A stretch of 64,000 nt of DNA. Source: an uncultured Bacteroidia bacterium. GTDB lineage: Bacteria; Bacteroidota; Bacteroidia; Bacteroidales; UBA932. Both the position numbers and the translations under genes were made by a program. This document shows positions 2,387 to 64,000 of the stretch, piece after piece. The stretch is taken from NCBI GenBank assembly GCA_902785785.1, contig CADAAA010000001.1:310001-374000 (forward strand), read 5' to 3'. The notes below the pieces were generated by a model, which was not told the origin of the DNA, did not search any database, and saw only the letters and a list, made by a program, of their open reading frames with translations. The first letter of the stretch is position 1; each line of letters begins with the position of its first letter.

Positions 2387-4027
2387 CTAATTAGGGTTTA
2401 TAAAGTCATCAACACTATTAGTCACATATAATTCAAACAAAGTGTCTATATCTGAGTCTGTAACACCCACTGGTTCTGACCATTTAACTTTGGTTTTTAA
2501 GTTTGAGAGGGTGTATGTGTTATTGCTCAGAATACCGCTTAACTGCAATCCAGTATAACCACTAACACTATCGTCTGGTAATGATGAACAATTAGGAATA
2601 GTATTATCTAAATGCTGATTATAGTCATCGTATAAATCGAGGAAAATAGGGGTATATTCGATGCTGTTTCCACTGCTTGTGCCAGGCCATTCTTTTTCGT
2701 ATACATTATAATAAATAAAACCATCAGTATTCTGGCTCCCATATTCTTTATTGTATGCAATAAGTCCCGAGAATAACGCCCAGCTTTCTTTTACCGCTGT
2801 GCTGTAACTACCATAATCGTTATCGTTATGTGAATAATGAGCCGAGTGCCCTAGTTCATGCGCTATAACATAATACATTTTATCTATACTATGTAAACTA
2901 CCAAATATATCGTAAATCCAGGATTCAATATGATACCCCATTGCATTGGCATTGGTAAACACACTTGGATATGAATTACTCGTATCATGCTGACATATCT
3001 TCAGTTTGTTATTGAAAGCTGGCCGGAGTATTCCTTCGATATCCTTGAAATAAAACGTATATGCCGCTCTCTGGGTTGCCGCATAACGAACATTCTTTTC
3101 ATGGGTTGTTCCAATCTCAGGGAACCATGAGGTGCTTAACGTTGGACCGTCAAAGGTTGCTTGCCCTGTAAGGCCGTCCCTGATGTCCCAGTCATTGGAT
3201 TCCCAAATGATTTTATACGTTACAGAGCTGTTGAATGACGCTAGTGTGAATCGGCCTTCATTGTCTGTCAGGCCTTCCTTTACTTTCAGCAAGTGAGTGG
3301 CACGGACTCTCACCCCAGGGACAGGAGTCATGGCGTTGTGTACATTGTCGTATGCACGGATCCTTCCACTGGGCGTCCAGGAGGCCTTTGTTTCCGGGAA
3401 GTATTCGTTTCCGGTGATACGATAGGCTTCTTTCAGGAGAGCGTCATAGGCATGAGCCGGAATTCCATACTGTTCTTCCGACTTGGTAGTGTATGCCTCG
3501 TCATAGTCCGGGATATATGCCTTTATGAGGATTTCTGCTTCAACCGGAACAGTTTTTTCAAGCTCTCTCCAACGCTCTACAGGCACAACGGTATATTGGA
3601 ATGTCGGAAGATCCTCCGGAATGGAAGGGTCGTGATAGCTTGAGCCACCGACAACTACCTTGCGGTCTAACGGGGTTTCACTCAGGAAAACGTAGGGCTT
3701 GATGTTACGGAGAATATCCTGCTCTTCGATAGACTTTGGATAGAATCGGACATAATAATGAGTCGGCTGGATATCTTTCGGATCAATCTCTGATTTCGTC
3801 TGGGCCGGAAGATTCTCGTAAGCCTTTAAAAGGTTCTCTATCGAGTATGGAATGTCGATGGCATCTCCAAGGACAGTCTGTCCTTCAGTGGTGATAAACT
3901 CGTTGTCTGATTCAATTACTGTTCCGATCTGATTAGGATCAAGTATAGGGTCATCTATGGTCTGACAGGCAACCATACTGACTGCGATGGCAAAGTACAT
4001 AACCTTGCGGAAATTTGAGTGTTTCAT
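2387..4027 (-). CDS. lipoprotein zinc metallopeptidase (metzincin-like)
   Basis: 546-residue predicted secreted lipoprotein; lipobox at VSMVAC near residue 21. A carboxypeptidase-regulatory-like fold is suggested around residues 215-275 (PVPGVRVRATHL followed by TDNEGRFTLASF). The catalytic candidate is HELGHSAHYSH at residues 390-400: HExxH plus a third His at the metzincin spacing, but the usual Gly at the eighth position is His. The motif is preceded by hydrophobic YYVIA, as expected for an active-site helix. What it cuts is unknown. It is AT-rich compared with flanking genes, a possible sign of transfer. It lies upstream of the small lipoprotein and TonB receptor on the same strand, separated by 64 nt. 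Confidence 0.75.
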   Translation of the reverse strand: MKHSNFRKVMYFAIAVSMVACQTIDDPILDPNQIGTVIESDNEFITTEGQTVLGDAIDIPYSIENLLKAYENLPAQTKSEIDPKDIQPTHYYVRFYPKSIEEQDILRNIKPYVFLSETPLDRKVVVGGSSYHDPSIPEDLPTFQYTVVPVERWRELEKTVPVEAEILIKAYIPDYDEAYTTKSEEQYGIPAHAYDALLKEAYRITGNEYFPETKASWTPSGRIRAYDNVHNAMTPVPGVRVRATHLLKVKEGLTDNEGRFTLASFNSSVTYKIIWESNDWDIRDGLTGQATFDGPTLSTSWFPEIGTTHEKNVRYAATQRAAYTFYFKDIEGILRPAFNNKLKICQHDTSNSYPSVFTNANAMGYHIESWIYDIFGSLHSIDKMYYVIAHELGHSAHYSHNDNDYGSYSTAVKESWALFSGLIAYNKEYGSQNTDGFIYYNVYEKEWPGTSSGNSIEYTPIFLDLYDDYNQHLDNTIPNCSSLPDDSVSGYTGLQLSGILSNNTYTLSNLKTKVKWSEPVGVTDSDIDTLFELYVTNSVDDFINPN

Positions 4028-4384: not shown

Positions 4385-4984
4385 CTAGAACACCCAGCCG
4401 AGGCGGATACCCTTGCTGGAAAATTCGTGATCGAAGAAGCCGCCTCTCTGGGATCTTTCCTCGAAACCTTTTATACCGAAATTGTGGATATAACGCAGAT
4501 CCACTCCGACCCTCAAATGACGGCCGATCTGTAATCCAGCCTGAGGCGAGAGAATGACTCCGGTTGCACTTTTGAAGTCATCTGCAAATAACTCTCTCTC
4601 GAACAACATCGATGTCCCGGCACCGATGCCGGCATAGATCTTCGATTTTGTTCCAAGAGGTATATTGCGGTATGCGGACATGATAAGCGATGGATTGATG
4701 AAATCAAGGTTGTACGCACTATGGTGCCTGCGCCGTCCTCCCTGCAGGGAGAAGGAGAGAGCCAGATCGTATGTGGACTCCAGGCCCCAGTGGTATGCTG
4801 CGTCGACAGCCCAGCCAAGGTCGCGATACGAAGTTTCATTTGTAGCCAGCAGCCACTTATATACATCTGTCCCTGCCCTAATCTCATACTTATCAAAACT
4901 TTTTGACTGCGCGGTGCTTACAGTACTCACCATTGGTAGCAAAGCAATTAGAATCAAAATGAAAGGACGTTTCATATTCTTCAT
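4385..4984 (-). CDS. outer-membrane beta-barrel protein (OmpX/PF13568-like)
   Basis: 199-residue small beta-barrel. The ATG at 4984 is chosen because MKNMKRPFILILIALLPM begins a clear signal peptide ending near STAQS; the open frame continues upstream but would place charged sequence before it. The mature part alternates hydrophobic and polar residues in short strands (YAGIGAGTSMLF, VGVDLRYIHNFG) and ends GIRLGWVF, with the terminal Phe typical of BAM substrates. It is transcribed divergently from the ECF sigma gene at 5109, and its upstream region carries the same bipartite element as the sigma gene, so it is a good candidate for a direct member of that regulon. Function beyond barrel is unknown. 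Confidence 0.8.
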   Translation of the reverse strand: MKNMKRPFILILIALLPMVSTVSTAQSKSFDKYEIRAGTDVYKWLLATNETSYRDLGWAVDAAYHWGLESTYDLALSFSLQGGRRRHHSAYNLDFINPSLIMSAYRNIPLGTKSKIYAGIGAGTSMLFERELFADDFKSATGVILSPQAGLQIGRHLRVGVDLRYIHNFGIKGFEERSQRGGFFDHEFSSKGIRLGWVF

Positions 4985-5001
4985 TGGTTTCGTTTTACCA
5001 T

Positions 5002-5032
5002 ATAAACACACGCCAAGGGCAAATCTTTCCGA
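5002..5032 (-). promoter_or_regulatory. candidate ECF-type promoter for the beta-barrel gene
   Basis: On the minus strand TCGGAAA (5032-5026), 17 nt, TGTTTAT (5008-5002), ending 17 nt before the ATG at 4984. The identical two boxes with identical spacing occur in the opposite direction before the sigma gene. A longer match, TACCATATAAACACAC (4996-5011, plus strand), differs by one base from 59993-60008 before the second sigma gene. The box shape resembles an ECF promoter, but I cannot assign the recognising sigma. Confidence 0.5.
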
Positions 5033-5054
5033 CAATGATGAAAAATGCTATTAT

Positions 5055-5074
5055 TTTCCGATATTAGTCGGAAA
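5055..5074. repeat. perfect 7-bp inverted repeat between divergent genes
   Basis: TTTCCGA (5055-5061) and TCGGAAA (5068-5074) form a perfect inverted repeat with a 6-nt spacer. A further TTTCCGA lies at 5026-5032. The right arm is also the upstream box of the proposed sigma promoter. It could be an operator or just two oppositely oriented promoter boxes. Confidence 0.5.
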
Positions 5075-5098
5075 GGTTTTGCCATCTTCAGTGTTTAT
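5068..5098 (+). promoter_or_regulatory. candidate autoregulated ECF promoter of the sigma gene
   Basis: TCGGAAA (5068-5074), 17 nt, TGTTTAT (5092-5098). It matches exactly the element reading the other way towards 4984. The downstream box is only 10 nt from the chosen GTG start, implying a very short leader, which is a point against it or against the start. Confidence 0.45.
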
Positions 5099-5108
5099 TT
5101 ACCAGAGT

Positions 5109-5660
5109 GTGAGTACAGAGGTTCAAACACACGAGAGAGAGTTGGCGGCTTTGTGCTCAAGAGGAGACGAGGCTGCCAGGAGAACTGTGTACGAACTGTA
5201 CTCGGGGTGGATATTGTGTATATGTCGAAGGTATATGCCTGACACTCAGGATGCCGAGGACTTGACACATGACGCGTTCATGAAGATTTTCGACAAGATC
5301 GGGAAGTTCCGTTATAGCGGCAAAGGGTCGCTGAAGGCATGGATGTCGAGGCTGACGGTGAATATGGCATTGAACAGGTTGAGAGATGAGAAGAAGATGG
5401 AGTCGCTGGATATCGCCGACGTCCCGGAGCCTACCGAAGAAGAGGCCAAGGATATCCCGCTCGACGTTCTTGTCTCGCTGATATCCTCTCTGCCGCCTCA
5501 GAGAAGGGCGGTGTTCAACATGTTCTGCATTGATGATTGGTCTCATGCAGAGATTGCGAAAGAGCTTGGAATCTCTGAGAACGCCTCTACCATCACTCTT
5601 CTCAAGGCCAGGAGGGAACTTGCCGCGAAAATCAAAGAATGGATAAAGGACAACGCATGA
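5109..5660 (+). CDS. ECF RNA polymerase sigma factor (module A)
   Basis: 183-residue sigma-70 family ECF factor that would direct RNA polymerase to envelope-response promoters. Region 2 is visible at roughly residues 22-90 (YELYSGW, DAEDLTHDAFMKIF, KGSLKAWMSRLTVNMALN), region 4 at about 125-180 (LPPQRRAVFNMF, SHAEIAKELGISENAS). The frame is open far upstream into the divergent gene but has no good ATG; GTG at 5109 gives MSTEVQTHERE, a normal ECF length. Its stop overlaps the next ATG as ATGA (5657-5660), implying translational coupling with the membrane-spanning partner. It is paralogous to the sigma at 59408-59968, with the same partner arrangement. Confidence 0.88.
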   Translation: MSTEVQTHERELAALCSRGDEAARRTVYELYSGWILCICRRYMPDTQDAEDLTHDAFMKIFDKIGKFRYSGKGSLKAWMSRLTVNMALNRLRDEKKMESLDIADVPEPTEEEAKDIPLDVLVSLISSLPPQRRAVFNMFCIDDWSHAEIAKELGISENASTITLLKARRELAAKIKEWIKDNA

Positions 5661-6829
5661 AAGACTGGACTGACATAGTATCTTCGAGGTTGAAGGATGC
5701 TTCCGGTGAGATGCCCAACGGAAGTTGGGAGACCCTTGCCTCAGACATTGCCGCCAGAAGCAGACGCAGGCGCATCTTCGGCTGGTCCGGAGCCTCTGCC
5801 GCGGCTGCCGCACTCGCTTTGTTGCTCCTTATTCCAGACAATGCCCCTACAACACCGGAACCGGTGCAGATAATTGCCGAGCAGAAGAACAGCACAGAGG
5901 AGATTCGGGAGGATGAACGCATTGAAAGTCAGATAGAATCGGCTAAGCCATTGATTGCAGAGGCAAACGCCACCAAAAGGAGCCCTGTCACGACGGAGCC
6001 ACCTGTCAATACGGAATCAGAAGAAGTCCCGGCGATAGTAGAACCTGCCAAAGCGAATACGGTAATTGAGCAGCCTGGCAAAGATACTCCTGCCCAAAAT
6101 GATTCCGACGAAGTCAACGAGCCTGTCACGCAGGAGGAGAAAGAGGTTTCAGACATACCGGATGAAGAGAACGATGTATGGGCGGTGCTCACCCGGGAAG
6201 ACGTACCTGAAAGGACAAGAAAACCGCTTTTGATAGGTGCATCAGGTAGTTATGGAGTGGTTGATGATGGCCCGAATGCTCTGACCCGACTGCTGGGTAT
6301 CTCATATTCATTTGAAGAAGATATAAATCATATATATGAAGTCATCTATAACCATCTTCCACCCTTGAAATTCGGGTTTTCAATAGGATACCCGCTCGGT
6401 GGGAAGTTGACTCTGAGTTCAGGTCTTGACCTGCTGATCTTCAAAAGTACCGTAACGAGAAAAGAAGAGCGGGCAATGCAAACTGCCTCCTATCTCAGCG
6501 TTCCGTTGCGATTCGACTATCAGCTCGTCTCCGTAGAACACTTCTCCGCATACGCCGGAGTCGGAGTTCAGGCGGACAGGTGCATTGCTGCCAATCTTGA
6601 TGGACAGCCCCTCAAGGATGACAGGATTAATCTCTCCGCCGGAGGGCAATTCAGGATTCAATATGACTTCGCGCCATGGGCCGGCCTATATCTGCAACCG
6701 GAGTTGTATCATTATTTCTTGCCGGATCATCCGGCAATCAAGACCTTCAGAACTTCAAATCCGACCATGCTCTCGGTCTCTGCCGGCCTGAGGTTTAAGC
6801 TGGGGGAATCATCGGGCTTCAGAAACTGA
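5657..6829 (+). CDS. dual-membrane-spanning anti-sigma-like protein with C-terminal beta-barrel (module A)
   Basis: 390 residues. Residues 1-39 form a short cytoplasmic head (MKDWTDIVSSRL...) ending in RSRRRR; 40-60 are one hydrophobic helix (ASAAAAALALLLLIP); about 61-190 are a disordered Glu/Pro/Thr/Val-rich linker; about 195-390 are beta-barrel strands of the PF13568-like type. The head, inner-membrane helix, periplasm-length linker and outer-membrane barrel in one chain match the Dma family reported from Bacteroides thetaiotaomicron, where such proteins hold the cognate ECF sigma and sense the outer membrane. It overlaps the sigma gene by 4 nt. The head begins like that of the second copy (MK-W--I---L). 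An ATG at 5639 would add six residues but breaks the ATGA coupling. The function is inferred from architecture. Confidence 0.8.
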   Translation: MKDWTDIVSSRLKDASGEMPNGSWETLASDIAARSRRRRIFGWSGASAAAAALALLLLIPDNAPTTPEPVQIIAEQKNSTEEIREDERIESQIESAKPLIAEANATKRSPVTTEPPVNTESEEVPAIVEPAKANTVIEQPGKDTPAQNDSDEVNEPVTQEEKEVSDIPDEENDVWAVLTREDVPERTRKPLLIGASGSYGVVDDGPNALTRLLGISYSFEEDINHIYEVIYNHLPPLKFGFSIGYPLGGKLTLSSGLDLLIFKSTVTRKEERAMQTASYLSVPLRFDYQLVSVEHFSAYAGVGVQADRCIAANLDGQPLKDDRINLSAGGQFRIQYDFAPWAGLYLQPELYHYFLPDHPAIKTFRTSNPTMLSVSAGLRFKLGESSGFRN

Positions 6830-6840
6830 TGCGGTAGCTT

Positions 6841-6869
6841 TTAACCTTCGGCAAAAAGCCGAAGGTTAA
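6841..6869. terminator. hairpin terminator, first of a tandem pair
   Basis: Perfect 12-bp arms TTAACCTTCGGC / GCCGAAGGTTAA around AAAAA, followed by TTTTTT at 6874-6879. It lies 11 nt after the stop of the anti-sigma-like gene, between convergent genes. Confidence 0.75.
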
Positions 6870-6892
6870 CGCGTTTTTTGCCGTTTTCCTTG

Positions 6893-6921
6893 TTAACCTT
6901 CGGCATTTTGCCGAAGGTTAA
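6893..6921. terminator. hairpin terminator, second of a tandem pair
   Basis: The same 12-bp arms as the hairpin at 6841, with loop ATTTT. It is probably bidirectional, serving the LysM gene on the minus strand. Confidence 0.65.
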
Positions 6922-6927
6922 ACGAGT

Positions 6928-6939
6928 GGGGGGGGGGGG
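6928..6939. repeat. poly-G tract of 12
   Basis: An uninterrupted run of twelve G, intergenic, 12 nt beyond the stop codon of the LysM gene. It is slippage-prone, but no promoter or start depends on it here. Confidence 0.9.
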
Positions 6940-6951
6940 ATATAGGAAGCG

Positions 6952-8658
6952 CTAGTTTACGAGCCTGATGCTGAAGTCCTGGCCGTAGACGATGCGTCGG
7001 ACGGCTTTGTTGACGTGTCCGCCACGGCGGTCGAAGTTGAAGTTGGACTGAAGTCCGTGCATGCTCTCACCGTCGAGCTTGTCCGGCCAGCGGCGTCCGT
7101 ACTTCGAACCCATCTTGATGAAGTTGTATGCGGTGTCGTAGCCCTGGAAGGCGAAGGGACCCGGCTCGGCATTGAAGAGCGCCCTGTACTTCAGGAGGAA
7201 GCGCTGCACGGCAGGTGAGTCGTAATCCACGAAATACGAAATCGATACGTGCAGGTTGACGTTGTGGAGGTACTCGACCTCGATAGTGTCGAAGGAGCGG
7301 ATCTTGGAAAGACTGTAGAGGACCACGTTGTCCCTGCGGTTGTTCCTGAGTGCCAGGCGGTTGGCATTGCGCACGACATCATTGACGAACGCCTCGCTCT
7401 CGGATGCGACGATGAGACGGATGGAGTTGCCGGAAGACGGGCTCTCGATGCTGTTGGAAAGGTTGCGGCCTTCGAGCGGTCCGTAGGTGATGGTGCTGTA
7501 CTGGAGTCCTGACTGCTGCATCTTCTCCACGATGACGTTGGCTGCAGCCGTCCTGGTGGCATTCTTTTCGACAAGCAGGACTATGCGGTCGCCGGGACGG
7601 CATTCTTCGGCCAGCCAGTCGACGAGGTCTTCGCTCTGGTTCTCGGCCGAGCTCGGAGCCTGGATGAGATTGTTGTAGACCCTGGCGAGTTCGACGGCCT
7701 TGGGCTCAAGAGGGGAAACTATCGGGGTGCCCGAAGGACTGATCTTGAGAGTCCCGGAGAGGTCGGCGGTGGAGATGGGGCCGATGACCACATCGCAGGA
7801 GCCGAGCTTGTCCGCAGTGACGGGGATGTTGCCACCGACGGCGTCATAGACGCTGAGGTCGACGTTGATACCCTCCGATTTGAGGTCCCTGGCGGCCATC
7901 AGGACGCCGCTGTAGAACTCGAGGTTGTTCTCGTTGGGAGATTTGGCGGCATTGAAAGGCAGGATCAGCGCTGCCGTGATGTCTTTCTTGCCTGCGTAGA
8001 GGAATTCATCGGCCTTCTCGGAGATGGCTTCTCCGATGGTTTCGAAGATATTCTTGGGCTTGTCCTCTTCCTGCTCCTCAGCCTCGGCTATGTCCTCTAC
8101 GGGAGCAACGGGAACTTCTTCCGCTATATCCACGCCTGCGGGCGGGATGCGGAGCTTCTGCTTGCGGGTCACCTGGGGTGAAGTCATGCCGTTGGCCCGC
8201 ATGATGGCCTCCTTGGTGACGCCGTATTTCTTGGCGATGGCACCGAGGTCCTCGTACCACTTGACAGTGTGGATGGTATAGTCGCCGGGCTGGGCGGCAG
8301 GGACGGAAACGGTCTTGTCGGCAGGGGCGGCCTGGGCCGGAGCCTGGCTCTCGGCACCGGGGGCGTTCTCCACATACGGGATGTGCAGGATCTGGTAGGT
8401 CTTCAGGCCTTCGGTCTCAAGCTTGAGGGTGGGATTGGCGTCATAGATGTCCTGGATGGATACGCCGTACGCCTTGGCTATCGAGAACAGCGTCTGGCGC
8501 TCAAGAACCACGTGCGAATAGTACAGCTTGCCGTTTTCCCGGACCTTGTCCCGGGAAATGGTCACGGGAGTGGCCTTGTATTCGGTGTCCTGCGCATGGA
8601 GCCGGCCCGCTCCGAGGAGCAGCACCGCAGCAAGGCAGACCATGAAAAGCTTTTTCAT
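6952..8658 (-). CDS. LysM protein with periplasmic-binding-protein-like domain
   Basis: 568 residues, exported: signal peptide MKKLFMVCLAAVLLLGAG...HAQ. Two LysM modules at about residues 45-95 (LYYSHVVLERQTLFSIAKAY...) and 130-175 (YTIHTVKWYEDLGAIAKKYG...), expected to bind peptidoglycan. After an acidic linker, residues of about 220-560 resemble a type I periplasmic binding fold (ITAALILPFN, FYSGVLMAARDL, CDVVIGPISTADL). Proteins of this kind are common in Bacteroidetes; the ligand is unknown and no ABC permease is nearby. It is last in the operon OmpH-like lipoprotein, GT4, LysM; its start overlaps the glycosyltransferase stop by 4 nt. Confidence 0.85.
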   Translation of the reverse strand: MKKLFMVCLAAVLLLGAGRLHAQDTEYKATPVTISRDKVRENGKLYYSHVVLERQTLFSIAKAYGVSIQDIYDANPTLKLETEGLKTYQILHIPYVENAPGAESQAPAQAAPADKTVSVPAAQPGDYTIHTVKWYEDLGAIAKKYGVTKEAIMRANGMTSPQVTRKQKLRIPPAGVDIAEEVPVAPVEDIAEAEEQEEDKPKNIFETIGEAISEKADEFLYAGKKDITAALILPFNAAKSPNENNLEFYSGVLMAARDLKSEGINVDLSVYDAVGGNIPVTADKLGSCDVVIGPISTADLSGTLKISPSGTPIVSPLEPKAVELARVYNNLIQAPSSAENQSEDLVDWLAEECRPGDRIVLLVEKNATRTAAANVIVEKMQQSGLQYSTITYGPLEGRNLSNSIESPSSGNSIRLIVASESEAFVNDVVRNANRLALRNNRRDNVVLYSLSKIRSFDTIEVEYLHNVNLHVSISYFVDYDSPAVQRFLLKYRALFNAEPGPFAFQGYDTAYNFIKMGSKYGRRWPDKLDGESMHGLQSNFNFDRRGGHVNKAVRRIVYGQDFSIRLVN

Positions 8659-58118: not shown

Positions 58119-59411
58119 TCAGTATCTTTTACCGAGATTGATGCGGAGGCCCGTGGCGACGGTGAACATAAACGGATGTGCGGTGCGGTAGGTCTCCAGC
58201 CTGTAGTCACCTTCTTCCATGATCACTATATCGCCATAAAAATCTAAATGCGCTTTCTTCGGAGGTTTGCTCCAGGTCAGTTCCGGTTCCAGGTACAGGC
58301 CTATCCGCTTGTTGAAGTTGAGTTGGATGCCGCCGGCACCGATCAGGGAGAAAACGAATCCGTCACGCCTGAGTTCCTGGATGCTATCCTTCAATGCAGG
58401 ATCAGTGTATTTGATGATTATCTTGGCCCCTATGCAGTAATCGGCGGCTGCGCCGCCTCCGACATAGACGTCAAGCAGTCTGTTTTTCGCCAGGGACCAG
58501 TCCAGGCGAACAGGGATTCCCAGATACTGCGCCACCTGCTTCCTCTCAACCTGGAATCCATGAACACCAAAAGAATCCATCATGTGAGAAGAAGTTGAGA
58601 TATAACGGCTGTACTCAAGGCCGGTGGTTATCTTCAATCTGGGCGCGACAGGGATTCCGACCGACAGGCCTTCCTTGAACAAGGGGAAATGATGGGAGTC
58701 TTCGTCCGTGAACGTAGCGAACGAACCGGAATAAGAAGTTTCCAGATTGTTTACCATGCTGGCAGAGTTGGTACCAGCTTGTGTGCCTGACCCGATGAAT
58801 TGTGTCAGGGCGGCTGCGAGCAGTCCGCCTCCGGTAACGATGCCTGCAGCAGGTGCGACCTTCAATTCAACGGGCTTGGCTGCAGTGCTTTTGGGGATGA
58901 CCGGTGAGGGAGCGGAAACGGAAGGCTCAGGGTCGGATACCACATCGGTTTCAGAGATTGAACCCTCTTCGGCAGGGATGACTTCTGCCGTATCTTCCGA
59001 AGGCTGGGTATTATCGGTTGTTTCGGGCTCTGTTACGTGTACTGGGTAATGGTTTGCCACCTTAGGCGTAATAGCCTGGGAGACAAGGTTATCGGATTGC
59101 AAAGGCTCTTCGGATTTGACAGTGTCCGCGACTGCGGCGACGGGTGCCGGCGGCTGCTGAGCGACCTGTATGCCGTCGCCTGGTACGGACGGCTTGTGGA
59201 GGAACAGGAATGCGGCCAGTCCGGCGGCAGCGGCGGGGACGAGGGCCCGGAGCAATGGACGGCGCCATGCTGCAGGCCGGACGGCCGGGACGGCCACGGC
59301 GGGGCTGCCGGAGGCGTCCAGACGGGTGAGGAATTCGGTAAAGAGATTCTCCGGAAGGGTGGCGTCAATCCTTTCCAGCTTATCCTTGATTATGCTTTCC
59401 CACGTTTTCAT
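58119..59411 (-). CDS. dual-membrane-spanning anti-sigma-like protein with C-terminal beta-barrel (module B)
   Basis: 430 residues. Cytoplasmic head (about 1-51, MKTWESIIKDKLERID) ending AAWRRPLLR; membrane helix at about 52-71 (ALVPAAAAGLAAFLFL); a Pro/Glu/Thr-rich linker to about 190; barrel strands to the C-terminal LRINLGKRY (IGAGGIQLNFNKRIGLYLEPEL). Same order of parts and same start pattern (MK-W--I---L) as the module A protein at 5657-6829. It overlaps its sigma gene by 4 nt (ATGA at 59408-59411). Linker length seems enough to cross the periplasm. Dma assignment is by architecture, not alignment. Confidence 0.8.
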   Translation of the reverse strand: MKTWESIIKDKLERIDATLPENLFTEFLTRLDASGSPAVAVPAVRPAAWRRPLLRALVPAAAAGLAAFLFLHKPSVPGDGIQVAQQPPAPVAAVADTVKSEEPLQSDNLVSQAITPKVANHYPVHVTEPETTDNTQPSEDTAEVIPAEEGSISETDVVSDPEPSVSAPSPVIPKSTAAKPVELKVAPAAGIVTGGGLLAAALTQFIGSGTQAGTNSASMVNNLETSYSGSFATFTDEDSHHFPLFKEGLSVGIPVAPRLKITTGLEYSRYISTSSHMMDSFGVHGFQVERKQVAQYLGIPVRLDWSLAKNRLLDVYVGGGAAADYCIGAKIIIKYTDPALKDSIQELRRDGFVFSLIGAGGIQLNFNKRIGLYLEPELTWSKPPKKAHLDFYGDIVIMEEGDYRLETYRTAHPFMFTVATGLRINLGKRY

Positions 59412-59968
59412 GTTTCTTGTTCCTTTAGATATTGTCTTATCCTTTCTTTCAGTTGCTTCCTTGCCTTTTCCAGTGCGCTGATCGATGCACGCTCGCTGAT
59501 ACCCAGCATCCTGCCTATCTCCTTATGGGAGTATCCGTCCAGGCTGTGGAGGTTGAAGACCGTCCTTCTCAGATCCGACAGCTCAGCTATCCATCCTATC
59601 AGTTTCTCCTCCGGAATAGATTCCATCGCATCGTCGGCAGGGTCCGGGATGTCGTCTTTCGCCGGGAAGTTCAGCGGGACCACGTGAAGGCGGCGTCGCT
59701 TTATGTGGTTGATAGCCTTGTTGACGGCGATCCTGCTGATCCATCCGTACAGGGAGCCCTTCCCCGTAAACTTGTAAGTGTCAATCTTCTTGAGTGCCTG
59801 GACAAGAGTTTCGAGCATGAGGTCGTCGGCCTCGTCTCCGTCTCCGAGATAGCGTCTGCAGAGCATGTTGACCCTGGCTGCATATCTTCTATACAACTCT
59901 TCCTCCGCCATTCTGTCCCTCTGCGAGCAGTACCTGGCCAGTGCCTGCTCGTCCAAATCTTTATACAC
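59408..59968 (-). CDS. ECF RNA polymerase sigma factor (module B)
   Basis: 186 residues. Region 2 at about 22-90 (LYRRYAARVNMLCRRYLGD, KGSLYGWISRIAVNKAINHI), region 4 at about 125-185 (LSDLRRTVFNLHSLDGYSHKE, GISERAS). Paralogous to 5109-5660. Partner gene starts within its stop codon. The upstream region carries TCGGGGA-N19-TGTTTAA, a looser version of the module A promoter, 30 nt before the ATG, so autoregulation is plausible. Confidence 0.93.
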   Translation of the reverse strand: MYKDLDEQALARYCSQRDRMAEEELYRRYAARVNMLCRRYLGDGDEADDLMLETLVQALKKIDTYKFTGKGSLYGWISRIAVNKAINHIKRRRLHVVPLNFPAKDDIPDPADDAMESIPEEKLIGWIAELSDLRRTVFNLHSLDGYSHKEIGRMLGISERASISALEKARKQLKERIRQYLKEQET

Positions 59969-59998
59969 TCATCCGCTTCAAAACGTCGTTCCTACCAT

Positions 59999-60031
59999 TT
60001 AAACACACAAATGTCGGAAATGTATCCCCGA
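59999..60031 (-). promoter_or_regulatory. candidate ECF-type promoter of module B sigma
   Basis: Minus-strand TCGGGGA (60031-60025), 19 nt, TGTTTAA (60005-59999); the downstream box lies 30 nt before the ATG. The 16-mer TACCATTTAAACACAC at 59993-60008 differs by one base from 4996-5011 before the module A barrel gene. Confidence 0.45.
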
Positions 60032-63184: not shown

Positions 63185-64000
63185 TAAAGACGCTGCAGGT
63201 GATCCTGGCCCTCTCGATCCTGATCGTGATCCATGAGTTCGGCCACTTCACTTTTGCCAAGCTTTTCGGCATACGTGTGGACAAATTCTTCCTCTTCTTC
63301 GACGTGGGAGGTGTCAAGCTTTTCTCGTCCAAGAAGACCAAGTGGTTCACCAAGCTCTTCCCCAAAGCGGCTGAGGCCGAGACCGAGTACGGCATAGGCT
63401 GGCTGCCGCTGGGTGGATACTGCAAGATATGCGGCATGATAGACGAGTCCATGGACCTGGAGAGCCTGAAGAAGGATCCCCAGCCGTGGGAGTTCCGCAC
63501 CAAGAAGGCGTGGCAGCGGCTGCTGGTGATGGCTGGAGGAGTGCTTTACAATTTCATCTTCGCCATCATAGCGTACAGCTGCATACTCGGCATTTGGGGG
63601 CAGGCGTACTTCTCGAACAAGGACAATGCCATCTATGTCAATGAGTTGGCATACGAGATGGGCTTCCGCAGCGGTGACCGCATCCTTGCTTTCGACGACT
63701 ATGTGCCGGAGAATTTCAGCATGCTGCAGGCTGACCTGGCCCGCCGCAATGTCCGCAAGGCTACGGTGCTGCGCGGTACTGATACGCTTGACATATACAT
63801 CGACCACTCGATGATAGGGGAGGTGCTGAACACCCCCGGAATGTTCGACCTGGCCGTCCCGTTTGTGGTGGAGTCGTTCATGGAAGGGTCCCCTAACGTG
63901 GATTCAGGCTTGGTGAAGGGTGACCGGATCGTATCCATCGAGGGCAGGGAAGTGCCCTATGTACAGGATTCGCGTCCGGTGCTCGAGACCTTTGCTGGAC
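63172..64000 (+). CDS. rseP: RseP-type site-2 membrane protease, 3' end cut by window edge
   Basis: 276 codons visible. ATG 63172 overlaps dxr by 13 nt and gives MVVLIKTLQVILALSILIVI as the first helix, with zinc motif HEFGHF at about 21-26, and the third-helix region WQRLLVMAGGVLYNFIFAI at about 118-136. PDZ domain(s) start near 155 (VNELAYEMGFRSGDRI) and near 240. Cleaves membrane-bound anti-sigma factors in other bacteria; here it could process the two membrane-spanning modules, but nothing in the sequence proves it. A usual dxr neighbour. Confidence 0.95.
   Translation, partial: MVVLIKTLQVILALSILIVIHEFGHFTFAKLFGIRVDKFFLFFDVGGVKLFSSKKTKWFTKLFPKAAEAETEYGIGWLPLGGYCKICGMIDESMDLESLKKDPQPWEFRTKKAWQRLLVMAGGVLYNFIFAIIAYSCILGIWGQAYFSNKDNAIYVNELAYEMGFRSGDRILAFDDYVPENFSMLQADLARRNVRKATVLRGTDTLDIYIDHSMIGEVLNTPGMFDLAVPFVVESFMEGSPNVDSGLVKGDRIVSIEGREVPYVQDSRPVLETFAG

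What the first reader, a model, noticed from the sequence alone, without database searches (positions are those of the whole stretch)
5109..6829. ECF sigma factor coupled to a one-chain inner-to-outer-membrane anti-sigma candidate (module A)
Seen: sigma stop and partner start overlap as ATGA; partner has basic cytoplasmic head, one helix, about 130-residue disordered linker, then barrel strands. Established: this order matches the dual membrane-spanning anti-sigma (Dma) proteins reported in Bacteroides thetaiotaomicron. Inference: this is a direct outer-membrane-state-to-transcription sensor.
Basis: partly seen in the sequence, partly recalled or inferred. Interest (0 to 1): 0.75.

Follow-up and report, generated by a model that had tools for sequence, protein, structure and literature searches.

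The report
Sigma switch wired to the outer membrane
This pair of genes looks like a known kind of bacterial alarm, in which one protein stretches from inside the cell to the outer membrane and holds a gene-activating factor in check; here it appears to switch on itself and the outer-membrane protein gene beside it.

Summary
Window 5109-5660 encodes an ECF sigma (Das-A). It overlaps by ATGA (5657-5660) a 390-residue partner (Dma-A): helical basic head, one helix, about 133 residues without predicted structure, and an 8-stranded OmpA-like barrel (AlphaFold2). Both proteins are homologous to EcfO-Reo/Das-Dma-type proteins of Phocaeicola and Bacteroides. In the best 80 named loci found through the sigma, 80 of 80 have a Dma partner. 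So this is a new member of the published Dma (Reo) family. Added here: (1) twin divergent promoters, one before Das-A and one before an adjacent, nearly orphan OMP gene, with no third site in the 2.36-Mb assembly: the predicted circuit is autoregulation plus one local OMP, in the slot where 32 of 66 parsed named loci carry a divergent nigD; (2) five Das-Dma pairs in one genome, three with different promoter elements; (3) tethers of at least about 103 residues in 95 placed homologs, one of them a minisatellite; (4) a natural sigma-Dma fusion in a genus-mate, suggesting proteolytic release. Outer-membrane sensing, sigma binding and proteolysis are inferred, not shown.

The parts
5109..5660 (+). 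Das-A, ECF sigma factor (183 aa, GTG start)
   Evidence: 38% identical to the P. vulgatus EcfO-type sigma, E 1e-47; on the das side of the tree, 93/90
5657..6829 (+). Dma-A, one-chain anti-sigma candidate (390 aa), overlaps Das-A by ATGA
5657..5782 (+). Dma-A head (about residues 1-42): two helices, W4/P20/W24 motif, basic end
5783..5836 (+). Dma-A Ala-rich membrane helix (about residues 43-60); Ala50 kept in 73 of 73
   Evidence: low model confidence, pLDDT 55-65
5837..6226 (+). Dma-A disordered tether (about residues 61-190)
   Evidence: No predicted helix or strand, pLDDT about 50-65; lowest identity of the four regions
6227..6802 (+). Dma-A eight-stranded OmpA-like barrel (residues 191-382)
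5067..5100 (+). Predicted Das-A promoter of the das-dma operon
   Evidence: GTCGGAAAG..GTGTTTAT element; with its twin the only match in window and assembly at up to 3 mismatches
5000..5033 (-). Twin predicted Das-A promoter facing the divergent OMP gene
4385..4984 (-). Predicted target: small outer-membrane barrel-like protein (199 aa from ATG at 4984), nearly orphan
   Evidence: PF13505 E 4e-06, 27.6 bits against a cut-off of 28.7; matches in 2 of 199 family genomes, own included; fold uninformative
6841..6869 (+). Terminator-like stem-loop after dma-A (12-bp stem, T run)
   Evidence: the scan finds no more such sites than its shuffles, so weak
59408..59968 (-). Das-B, second sigma of the same family in the window (module B)
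58119..59411 (-). Dma-B, partner of Das-B
59992..60026 (-). Predicted Das-B promoter, the only match in the assembly
   Evidence: G000:C1:369992-370026

Best explanation
Module A is a member of the Dma (Reo) family: an autoregulated ECF sigma with a one-chain anti-sigma running from cytoplasm to outer membrane. At rest the barrel is folded into the outer membrane, the tether crosses the periplasm, and the head holds Das-A. When outer-membrane assembly or integrity fails, the tether or barrel is disturbed. Dma-A is then probably cut in the periplasm and next in its membrane helix by an M50 site-2 protease (one was found in the genome), and Das-A is freed. Das-A then transcribes from two twin promoters: its own operon (positive feedback, plus fresh Dma-A to reset the switch) and the divergent OMP gene. 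Shown by computation: homology, architecture, twin promoter-like elements. Inferred: sigma binding, outer-membrane location, the signal, proteolysis, and that the elements are promoters. My step estimates: family membership 0.95; autoregulation and control of the OMP gene 0.8; outer-membrane-state sensing 0.6; release by proteolysis 0.5.
For: Homology of both proteins to P. vulgatus and B. finegoldii pairs. Das-A groups with them and apart from 10 of the 11 other own ECF sigmas, those tested. Barrel, tether and head predicted. Twin elements: two sites in the whole assembly, none for the reversed control; inverted similarity 24 of 34 against a maximum of 21 in 60 single-base shuffles. Relatives of module B carry a related element before das in 16 of 26 loci, 0.0 in shuffles, 1 of 24 in other loci (pattern read off the same loci). 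A divergent nigD lies within 400 bases of das in 32 of 66 parsed named loci, and in P. vulgatus the nigD with the neighbouring locus tag is reported in the EcfO regulon (PMC13114119, passages). ecfO-reo is among the most induced genes under the toxin BcpT and under bacteroidetocin A. Natural sigma-Dma fusion L052 and an M50 protease fit proteolytic release.
Against: No expression, localisation or binding data. The closest full-length Dma in the genus, L026, has no adjacent sigma. In P. vulgatus the twin pattern does not find the other two reported nigD targets, its inverted match is barely above shuffles (23 against 22), and two other loci tested show none; so the method is weakly validated and two sites is a lower bound for the regulon. 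L106 and L113 have head and helix but no detectable barrel, so a barrel is not obligatory for this head. The target OMP has almost no relatives and no usable fold model. M50 proteases ring in 14 of 14 control genomes, so their presence is weak support. The Das-A GTG lies only 8 nt after the predicted -10 end.
Confidence: 0.72

Rival explanations
1. Assembly check: the nascent barrel competes for BAM, and failure to insert leaves Dma-A to be degraded, so Das-A reports BAM capacity rather than membrane damage.
For: Dma is itself a BAM client by prediction (last strand with Gly377 kept in all 73 rows). P. vulgatus ecfO-reo is among the most induced genes under bacteroidetocin A, which inhibits BamA. 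The predicted target is an OMP.
Against: Not separable from the main reading by sequence; bacteroidetocin also damages the membrane.
Confidence: 0.3
2. Ligand receptor: the barrel loops bind a surface glycan or other molecule, and binding is passed along the tether to the head, as the Dma2 authors suggest for a glycan. The OMP gene would then serve uptake of, or response to, that ligand.
For: The PMC13088901 discussion proposes glycan sensing by Dma2. Sequence differences between barrels could give different specificities.
Against: An unstructured tether of over 100 residues is a poor conductor of conformational change (inference). By eye no polysaccharide-uptake genes lie beside module A (not searched with models). 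P. vulgatus Reo responds to an envelope-damaging toxin.
Confidence: 0.2
3. Mechanical gauge: the stretched tether is an entropic spring between the membranes, and its tension at head or helix sets sigma release without cutting.
For: Tethers of 95 placed homologs are all at least about 103 residues, at low sequence identity; a worm-like-chain estimate with assumed constants gives about 10 pN for 130 residues across 20 nm.
Against: The upper end is loose (median 149, maximum 343), so length is not tightly set. The fusion L052 cannot free its sigma by dissociation alone. A length floor is also expected from mere need to reach.
Confidence: 0.1
4. The C-terminal domain is a periplasmic beta domain or a decayed barrel, and the pair is an ordinary inner-membrane sigma/anti-sigma system.
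For: Dma-A's own Pfam barrel match is below the cut-off; barrel-less relatives exist.
Against: 64 of 73 homologs match PF13505; pLDDT over 90 in seven of eight strands; Foldseek OmpA TMt 0.70-0.73.
Confidence: 0.04

Closest known systems
Reo/EcfO of Phocaeicola vulgatus and Bacteroides fragilis (Dma1/Das1 type)
   Same: Sigma then Dma in one operon; head, helix, tether, barrel; divergent envelope-protein gene beside das; both proteins homologous
   Different: The divergent gene is a nearly orphan OMP instead of a NigD lipoprotein; promoter letters differ; barrel only 22% identical
Dma2/Das2-type operon (seen here in B. finegoldii and B. fragilis, assigned by gene order)
   Same: Compared with B. 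finegoldii: barrel 29% identical, E 1e-14; head 38% over 52 residues, E 7e-07; sigma 37%
   Different: That operon runs on into DUF4943 and further genes; after dma-A comes a terminator-like stem
Dma3 (sigma domain fused to Dma; described in PMC13088901)
   Same: L052 in a genus-mate of the window is such a fusion
   Different: Module A is two genes
TonB-dependent cell-surface signalling (FecA-FecR-FecI, FoxA-FoxR-FoxI)
   Same: An outer-membrane event controls an ECF sigma through a membrane anti-sigma
   Different: There a separate receptor acts on the anti-sigma (PMC11637429, abstract); here one chain would do both
RseA/sigma-E (recalled, no call)
   Same: Single-helix anti-sigma, outer-membrane signal, proteolytic release
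   Different: RseA has no tether or barrel; the signal comes from free OMP ends

Membership tests
Dma (Reo) anti-sigma family | Encoded beside a sigma of the ECF21/Das group | tested here: met
   ATGA overlap; Das-A on the das side of the tree with P. vulgatus and Bacteroides sigmas, 93/90. The ECF21 label itself was not tested: no ECF21 model was run
Dma (Reo) anti-sigma family | N-terminal sigma-binding domain, then a transmembrane helix | tested here: met
   Helices 3-13 and 23-41, then 44-57 at low confidence; hydrophobic stretch; head similar to a Dma2-type head, E 7e-07. Binding not testable here
Dma (Reo) anti-sigma family | Long intrinsically disordered tether | tested here: met
   Residues 58-190 without helix or strand, pLDDT about 50-65; about 133 residues
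Dma (Reo) anti-sigma family | C-terminal outer-membrane beta barrel | tested here: met
   fold only, location not tested
Dma (Reo) anti-sigma family | Sequence homology to B. thetaiotaomicron Dma1/Das1 themselves | not tested
   Their sequences were not retrieved; relatives in P. vulgatus and B. finegoldii were compared
Dma (Reo) anti-sigma family | Found only in Bacteroidota | not tested
   Whole-genome searches were kept inside the window's own phylum; no search for Dma outside it was run
Dma (Reo) anti-sigma family | Represses its sigma; loss raises vesicle output | not testable with these tools
   Needs mutants
TonB-dependent cell-surface signalling (FecR type) | FecR-type anti-sigma with a separate outer-membrane transducer | tested here: not met
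   No FecR match among Pfam families at E 1 or better in Dma-A; the barrel is part of the same chain

The most novel reading that the evidence does not exclude
Dma tethers are length-set mechanical rulers: a genome keeps several Das-Dma channels with separate promoter codes and different tether lengths (one extended by a 51-bp minisatellite to about 261 residues), so that each fires at a different inter-membrane distance or degree of outer-membrane detachment.
Probability: 0.07. Interest if true: 0.85.

Novelty: new member of a known kind. Interest (0 to 1): 0.42.

Why it matters
How a cell reports the state of its outer membrane through one chain is open: the parts of papers seen here call such sensing likely or hypothesise it, but show no signal or release step. 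Module A offers a compact test case: one sigma, one sensor, two twin promoter-like elements and one neighbouring target. The five parallel pairs, the minisatellite tether and the natural fusion are ready-made variants for separating proteolysis, assembly check and mechanical models.

Tried and rejected
(1) Shared ancestry of the target OMP and the Dma-A barrel: no similarity, best E 3.3. (2) Fold of the target OMP from one sequence: pLDDT 36, unusable. (3) Folding the L052 fusion with sigma and Dma rows mixed: MAFFT laid Dma rows over the sigma part, so it was not folded. (4) Solved relatives: no convincing hit for the Dma profile, best E 0.1; sigma hits are ordinary ECF sigmas. (5) Sigma-70-type promoters in 4950-6960: none. 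(6) TTTCCGA as a general element before das: 6 of 99 against 3.1 expected, rejected. (7) P. vulgatus regulon by twin pattern: only the two source sites at 0 mismatches, two more at 3 mismatches that are not beside nigD, control 4. The P. vulgatus inverted match is 23 against a shuffle maximum of 22; P. massiliensis (20 against 23) and G482 (21 against 24) show none. (8) The founding Dma1 and EcfO papers are not held. (9) Organism of the window: not determined.

Rows dropped or chosen before counts: one search skipped repeats of the same partner. One search parsed 66 of 80 named loci (14 gave no sigma gene under its rules): 37 had a divergent upstream gene, 36 of them within 400 bases, and those 36 were scanned. 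One search used hand-picked das rows (33) and 10 of the 11 other own ECFs. Alignment A5 (73 rows) was hand-picked, mostly from partners of 340-520 residues; longer ones were left out, so tethers were recounted without a length filter (95 placed; 9 barrel-bearing partners could not be placed). Most pairs counted came from Dma searches and so favour Dma partners; the 80 named loci do not.

Full report
What is there. At 5109-5660 (+) lies an ECF sigma gene, here Das-A; its stop overlaps the start of a 390-residue partner, Dma-A, as ATGA at 5657-5660. Das-A has sigma regions 2 and 4. Dma-A alone has only a sub-threshold barrel match (PF13505 E 0.0012). With 72 relatives added, AlphaFold2 gives two head helices (3-13, 23-41), a helix at 44-57 (pLDDT 55-65), no secondary structure over 58-190, and eight long strands between 191 and 382; pLDDT is over 90 from about residue 231 and about 61 in the first strand. 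Foldseek's best solved match is OmpA (9fzc, E 2.9e-06, TMt 0.70; the transmembrane domain 1bxw, TMt 0.73). 64 of the 73 aligned proteins match PF13505 at E 0.01 or better. Eight strands put both barrel ends in the periplasm, as a tether from the inner membrane needs (inference from known barrels).

Family. Named anchors came from one scan with a sigma alignment of unnamed same-order genomes; the best 80 of 578 relatives were returned. L176 is P. vulgatus ATCC 8482: nigD, sigma and Dma side by side, as the tags M0N98_03762, 03761 and 03760 suggest for strain CL10 (that it is the same locus is inferred). L195 is B. finegoldii: sigma, Dma, DUF4943 and further genes, the order reported for the Dma2 operon. 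Das-A is 38% and 37% identical to their sigmas (E 1e-47 and 2e-38). Dma-A matches the P. vulgatus barrel at 22% (E 5e-12) and the B. finegoldii barrel at 29% (E 1e-14), with a head match of 38% over 52 residues (E 7e-07). By tblastn Dma-A finds 64 and Das-A 80 of the 80 named loci at E 1e-3. In a tree of 43 sigmas, 33 das rows lie on one side of a branch (93/90) and 10 other own ECF sigmas on the other; Das-A joins the Das-B group (98/92). B. thetaiotaomicron Dma1/Das1 were not themselves compared.

Is the pairing constant? In the own genome 16 stretches match Sigma70_r4_2. Five belong to Das-Dma pairs: A, B and three on contig C10. None of the 10 partners parsed for the other sigmas has the barrel, while 4 of 10 match the short head profile at E 0.01, so that profile is not specific. 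Of the 80 named loci found through the sigma only, 80 have a Dma-profile partner. Of 110 das-partner pairs from the whole-genome searches, 103 match both head and barrel profiles; of the seven others one is the fusion L052 (counted with the wrong downstream gene), two are cut by the locus end, two (L106, L113) have head and helix but no barrel, and L107 and L128 fail in other ways. Of 88 loci found mostly through Dma searches, 80 have a das beside it, 1 is fused, 2 lie at edges, and 5 are unpaired; four of those five are short frames, but L026, the best full-length match to Dma-A in the genus, is a complete Dma without a sigma. Matches are common in this family: 126 of 149 genomes, 80 of 84 of high quality, and 80 of 101 in the genus; some of these matches cover the barrel only. 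With the same profile 46 of 296 genomes across the phylum match, so the profile is narrow or the family thins out.

Promoters and targets. Upstream of das-A, and facing the other way toward the gene at 4385-4984, lie two copies of one element, GTCGGAAAGRTTT..GTGTTTAT with the same spacing (5067-5100 + and 5000-5033 -). They are the only matches in the window and in the 2.36-Mb assembly (96% complete) at up to 3 mismatches; the reversed control has none. The pattern was written from these two sites, so their perfect match is by construction. The other points are that their inverted similarity exceeds 60 single-base shuffles (24 of 34 against 21 at most), that no third site was found, and that relatives of module B carry an element with the same GTGTTTA end before das (16 of 26 loci; 1 of 24 other loci; 0.0 in shuffles). 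Another branch carries GCAAC..GCATCTT (9 of 24), and so does own pair C2 (L008:15316-15343 -). These patterns too were read off the same sequences. Das-B's own element occurs once in the assembly. They look like separate autoregulatory codes. The divergent gene encodes a small outer-membrane barrel-like protein (PF13505 E 4e-06, just under the cut-off), with matches in only 2 of 199 family genomes, the own included, and unlike the Dma-A barrel. Among the named loci, 66 of 80 could be parsed; 36 have a divergent gene within 400 bases of das, and 32 of those 36 match NigD_C. P. vulgatus nigD genes, the one with the neighbouring tag among them, are reported in the EcfO regulon (passages of PMC13114119). 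So module A seems to keep the wiring and change the cargo. Caution: in P. vulgatus the same approach recovers only its two source sites and not the other two reported nigD targets, so the Das-A regulon may be larger. I saw no Das promoter described in the passages read or the listings; the two founding papers are not held, so this is no claim of priority.

How it may work. Ground state and release by outer-membrane stress follow the published proposals. I favour proteolytic release. A genus-mate has a natural single-chain sigma-Dma (L052:1507-3201, 564 residues, head helix 1 missing by eye), as reported for Dma3; such a sigma cannot leave by dissociation. The membrane helix is Ala-rich with Ala50 in 73 of 73 and Pro64 in 64 of 73. 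One M50 site-2 protease was found, starting at window 63199, though such proteases ring in all 14 control genomes. Tethers: mean distance from helix to the second strand 188, SD 24 in the 73 chosen rows. Without a length filter, 95 placed homologs have tethers of about 103 to 343 residues, median 149. Own Dma-C3 holds 11.3 copies of a 51-bp repeat. A worm-like-chain estimate with assumed constants puts a 130-residue tether at about 10 pN across 20 nm. That makes a mechanical model possible, not likely; I lowered its odds slightly after one search showed the loose upper end.

Verdict. The family was already published, as Dma in 2024 (reference list only) and 2026 (sections and passages), and as Reo, so the module is a new member of a known kind. 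Its added value is the compact twin-element circuit and the variants that make the open question of signal and release testable.

Noticed in passing
L008:5289-6494 (-) and 6504-7742 (-), own genome contig C10: Two serpin genes (PF00079, E 1.4e-100 and 1.8e-102) directly upstream of the sigma gene of another own Das-Dma pair, the nearer one overlapping it by 4 bases: protease inhibitors beside an anti-sigma.
   Followed up: partly
L009:3624-4197, own genome contig C10: A 51-bp minisatellite of 11.3 copies makes up most of the tether of own Dma-C3.
   Followed up: partly
L052:1507-3201 (-): Natural in-frame fusion of sigma and Dma (564 residues) in a genus-mate, followed by a lipoprotein-like gene.
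   Followed up: partly
L106 and L113: Partners of das-like sigmas with head and helix but no detectable barrel, 244 and 263 residues.
   Followed up: no
L026:1501-2580 (+): Full-length Dma, the closest to Dma-A in the genus search, without an adjacent sigma.
   Followed up: partly
window 6841-6869 and 6893-6921: Two nearly identical palindromes TTAACCTTCGGC..GCCGAAGGTTAA after dma-A, the only two exact matches in the window.
   Followed up: partly
window 2387-4027 (-): 546-residue lipoprotein-like protein with an HEXXH-type stretch (by eye) and only chance-level Pfam matches, downstream of the target OMP gene.
   Followed up: no
window 63199-64000 (+): Start of an M50 site-2 protease gene, the only match in the genome.
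   Followed up: no
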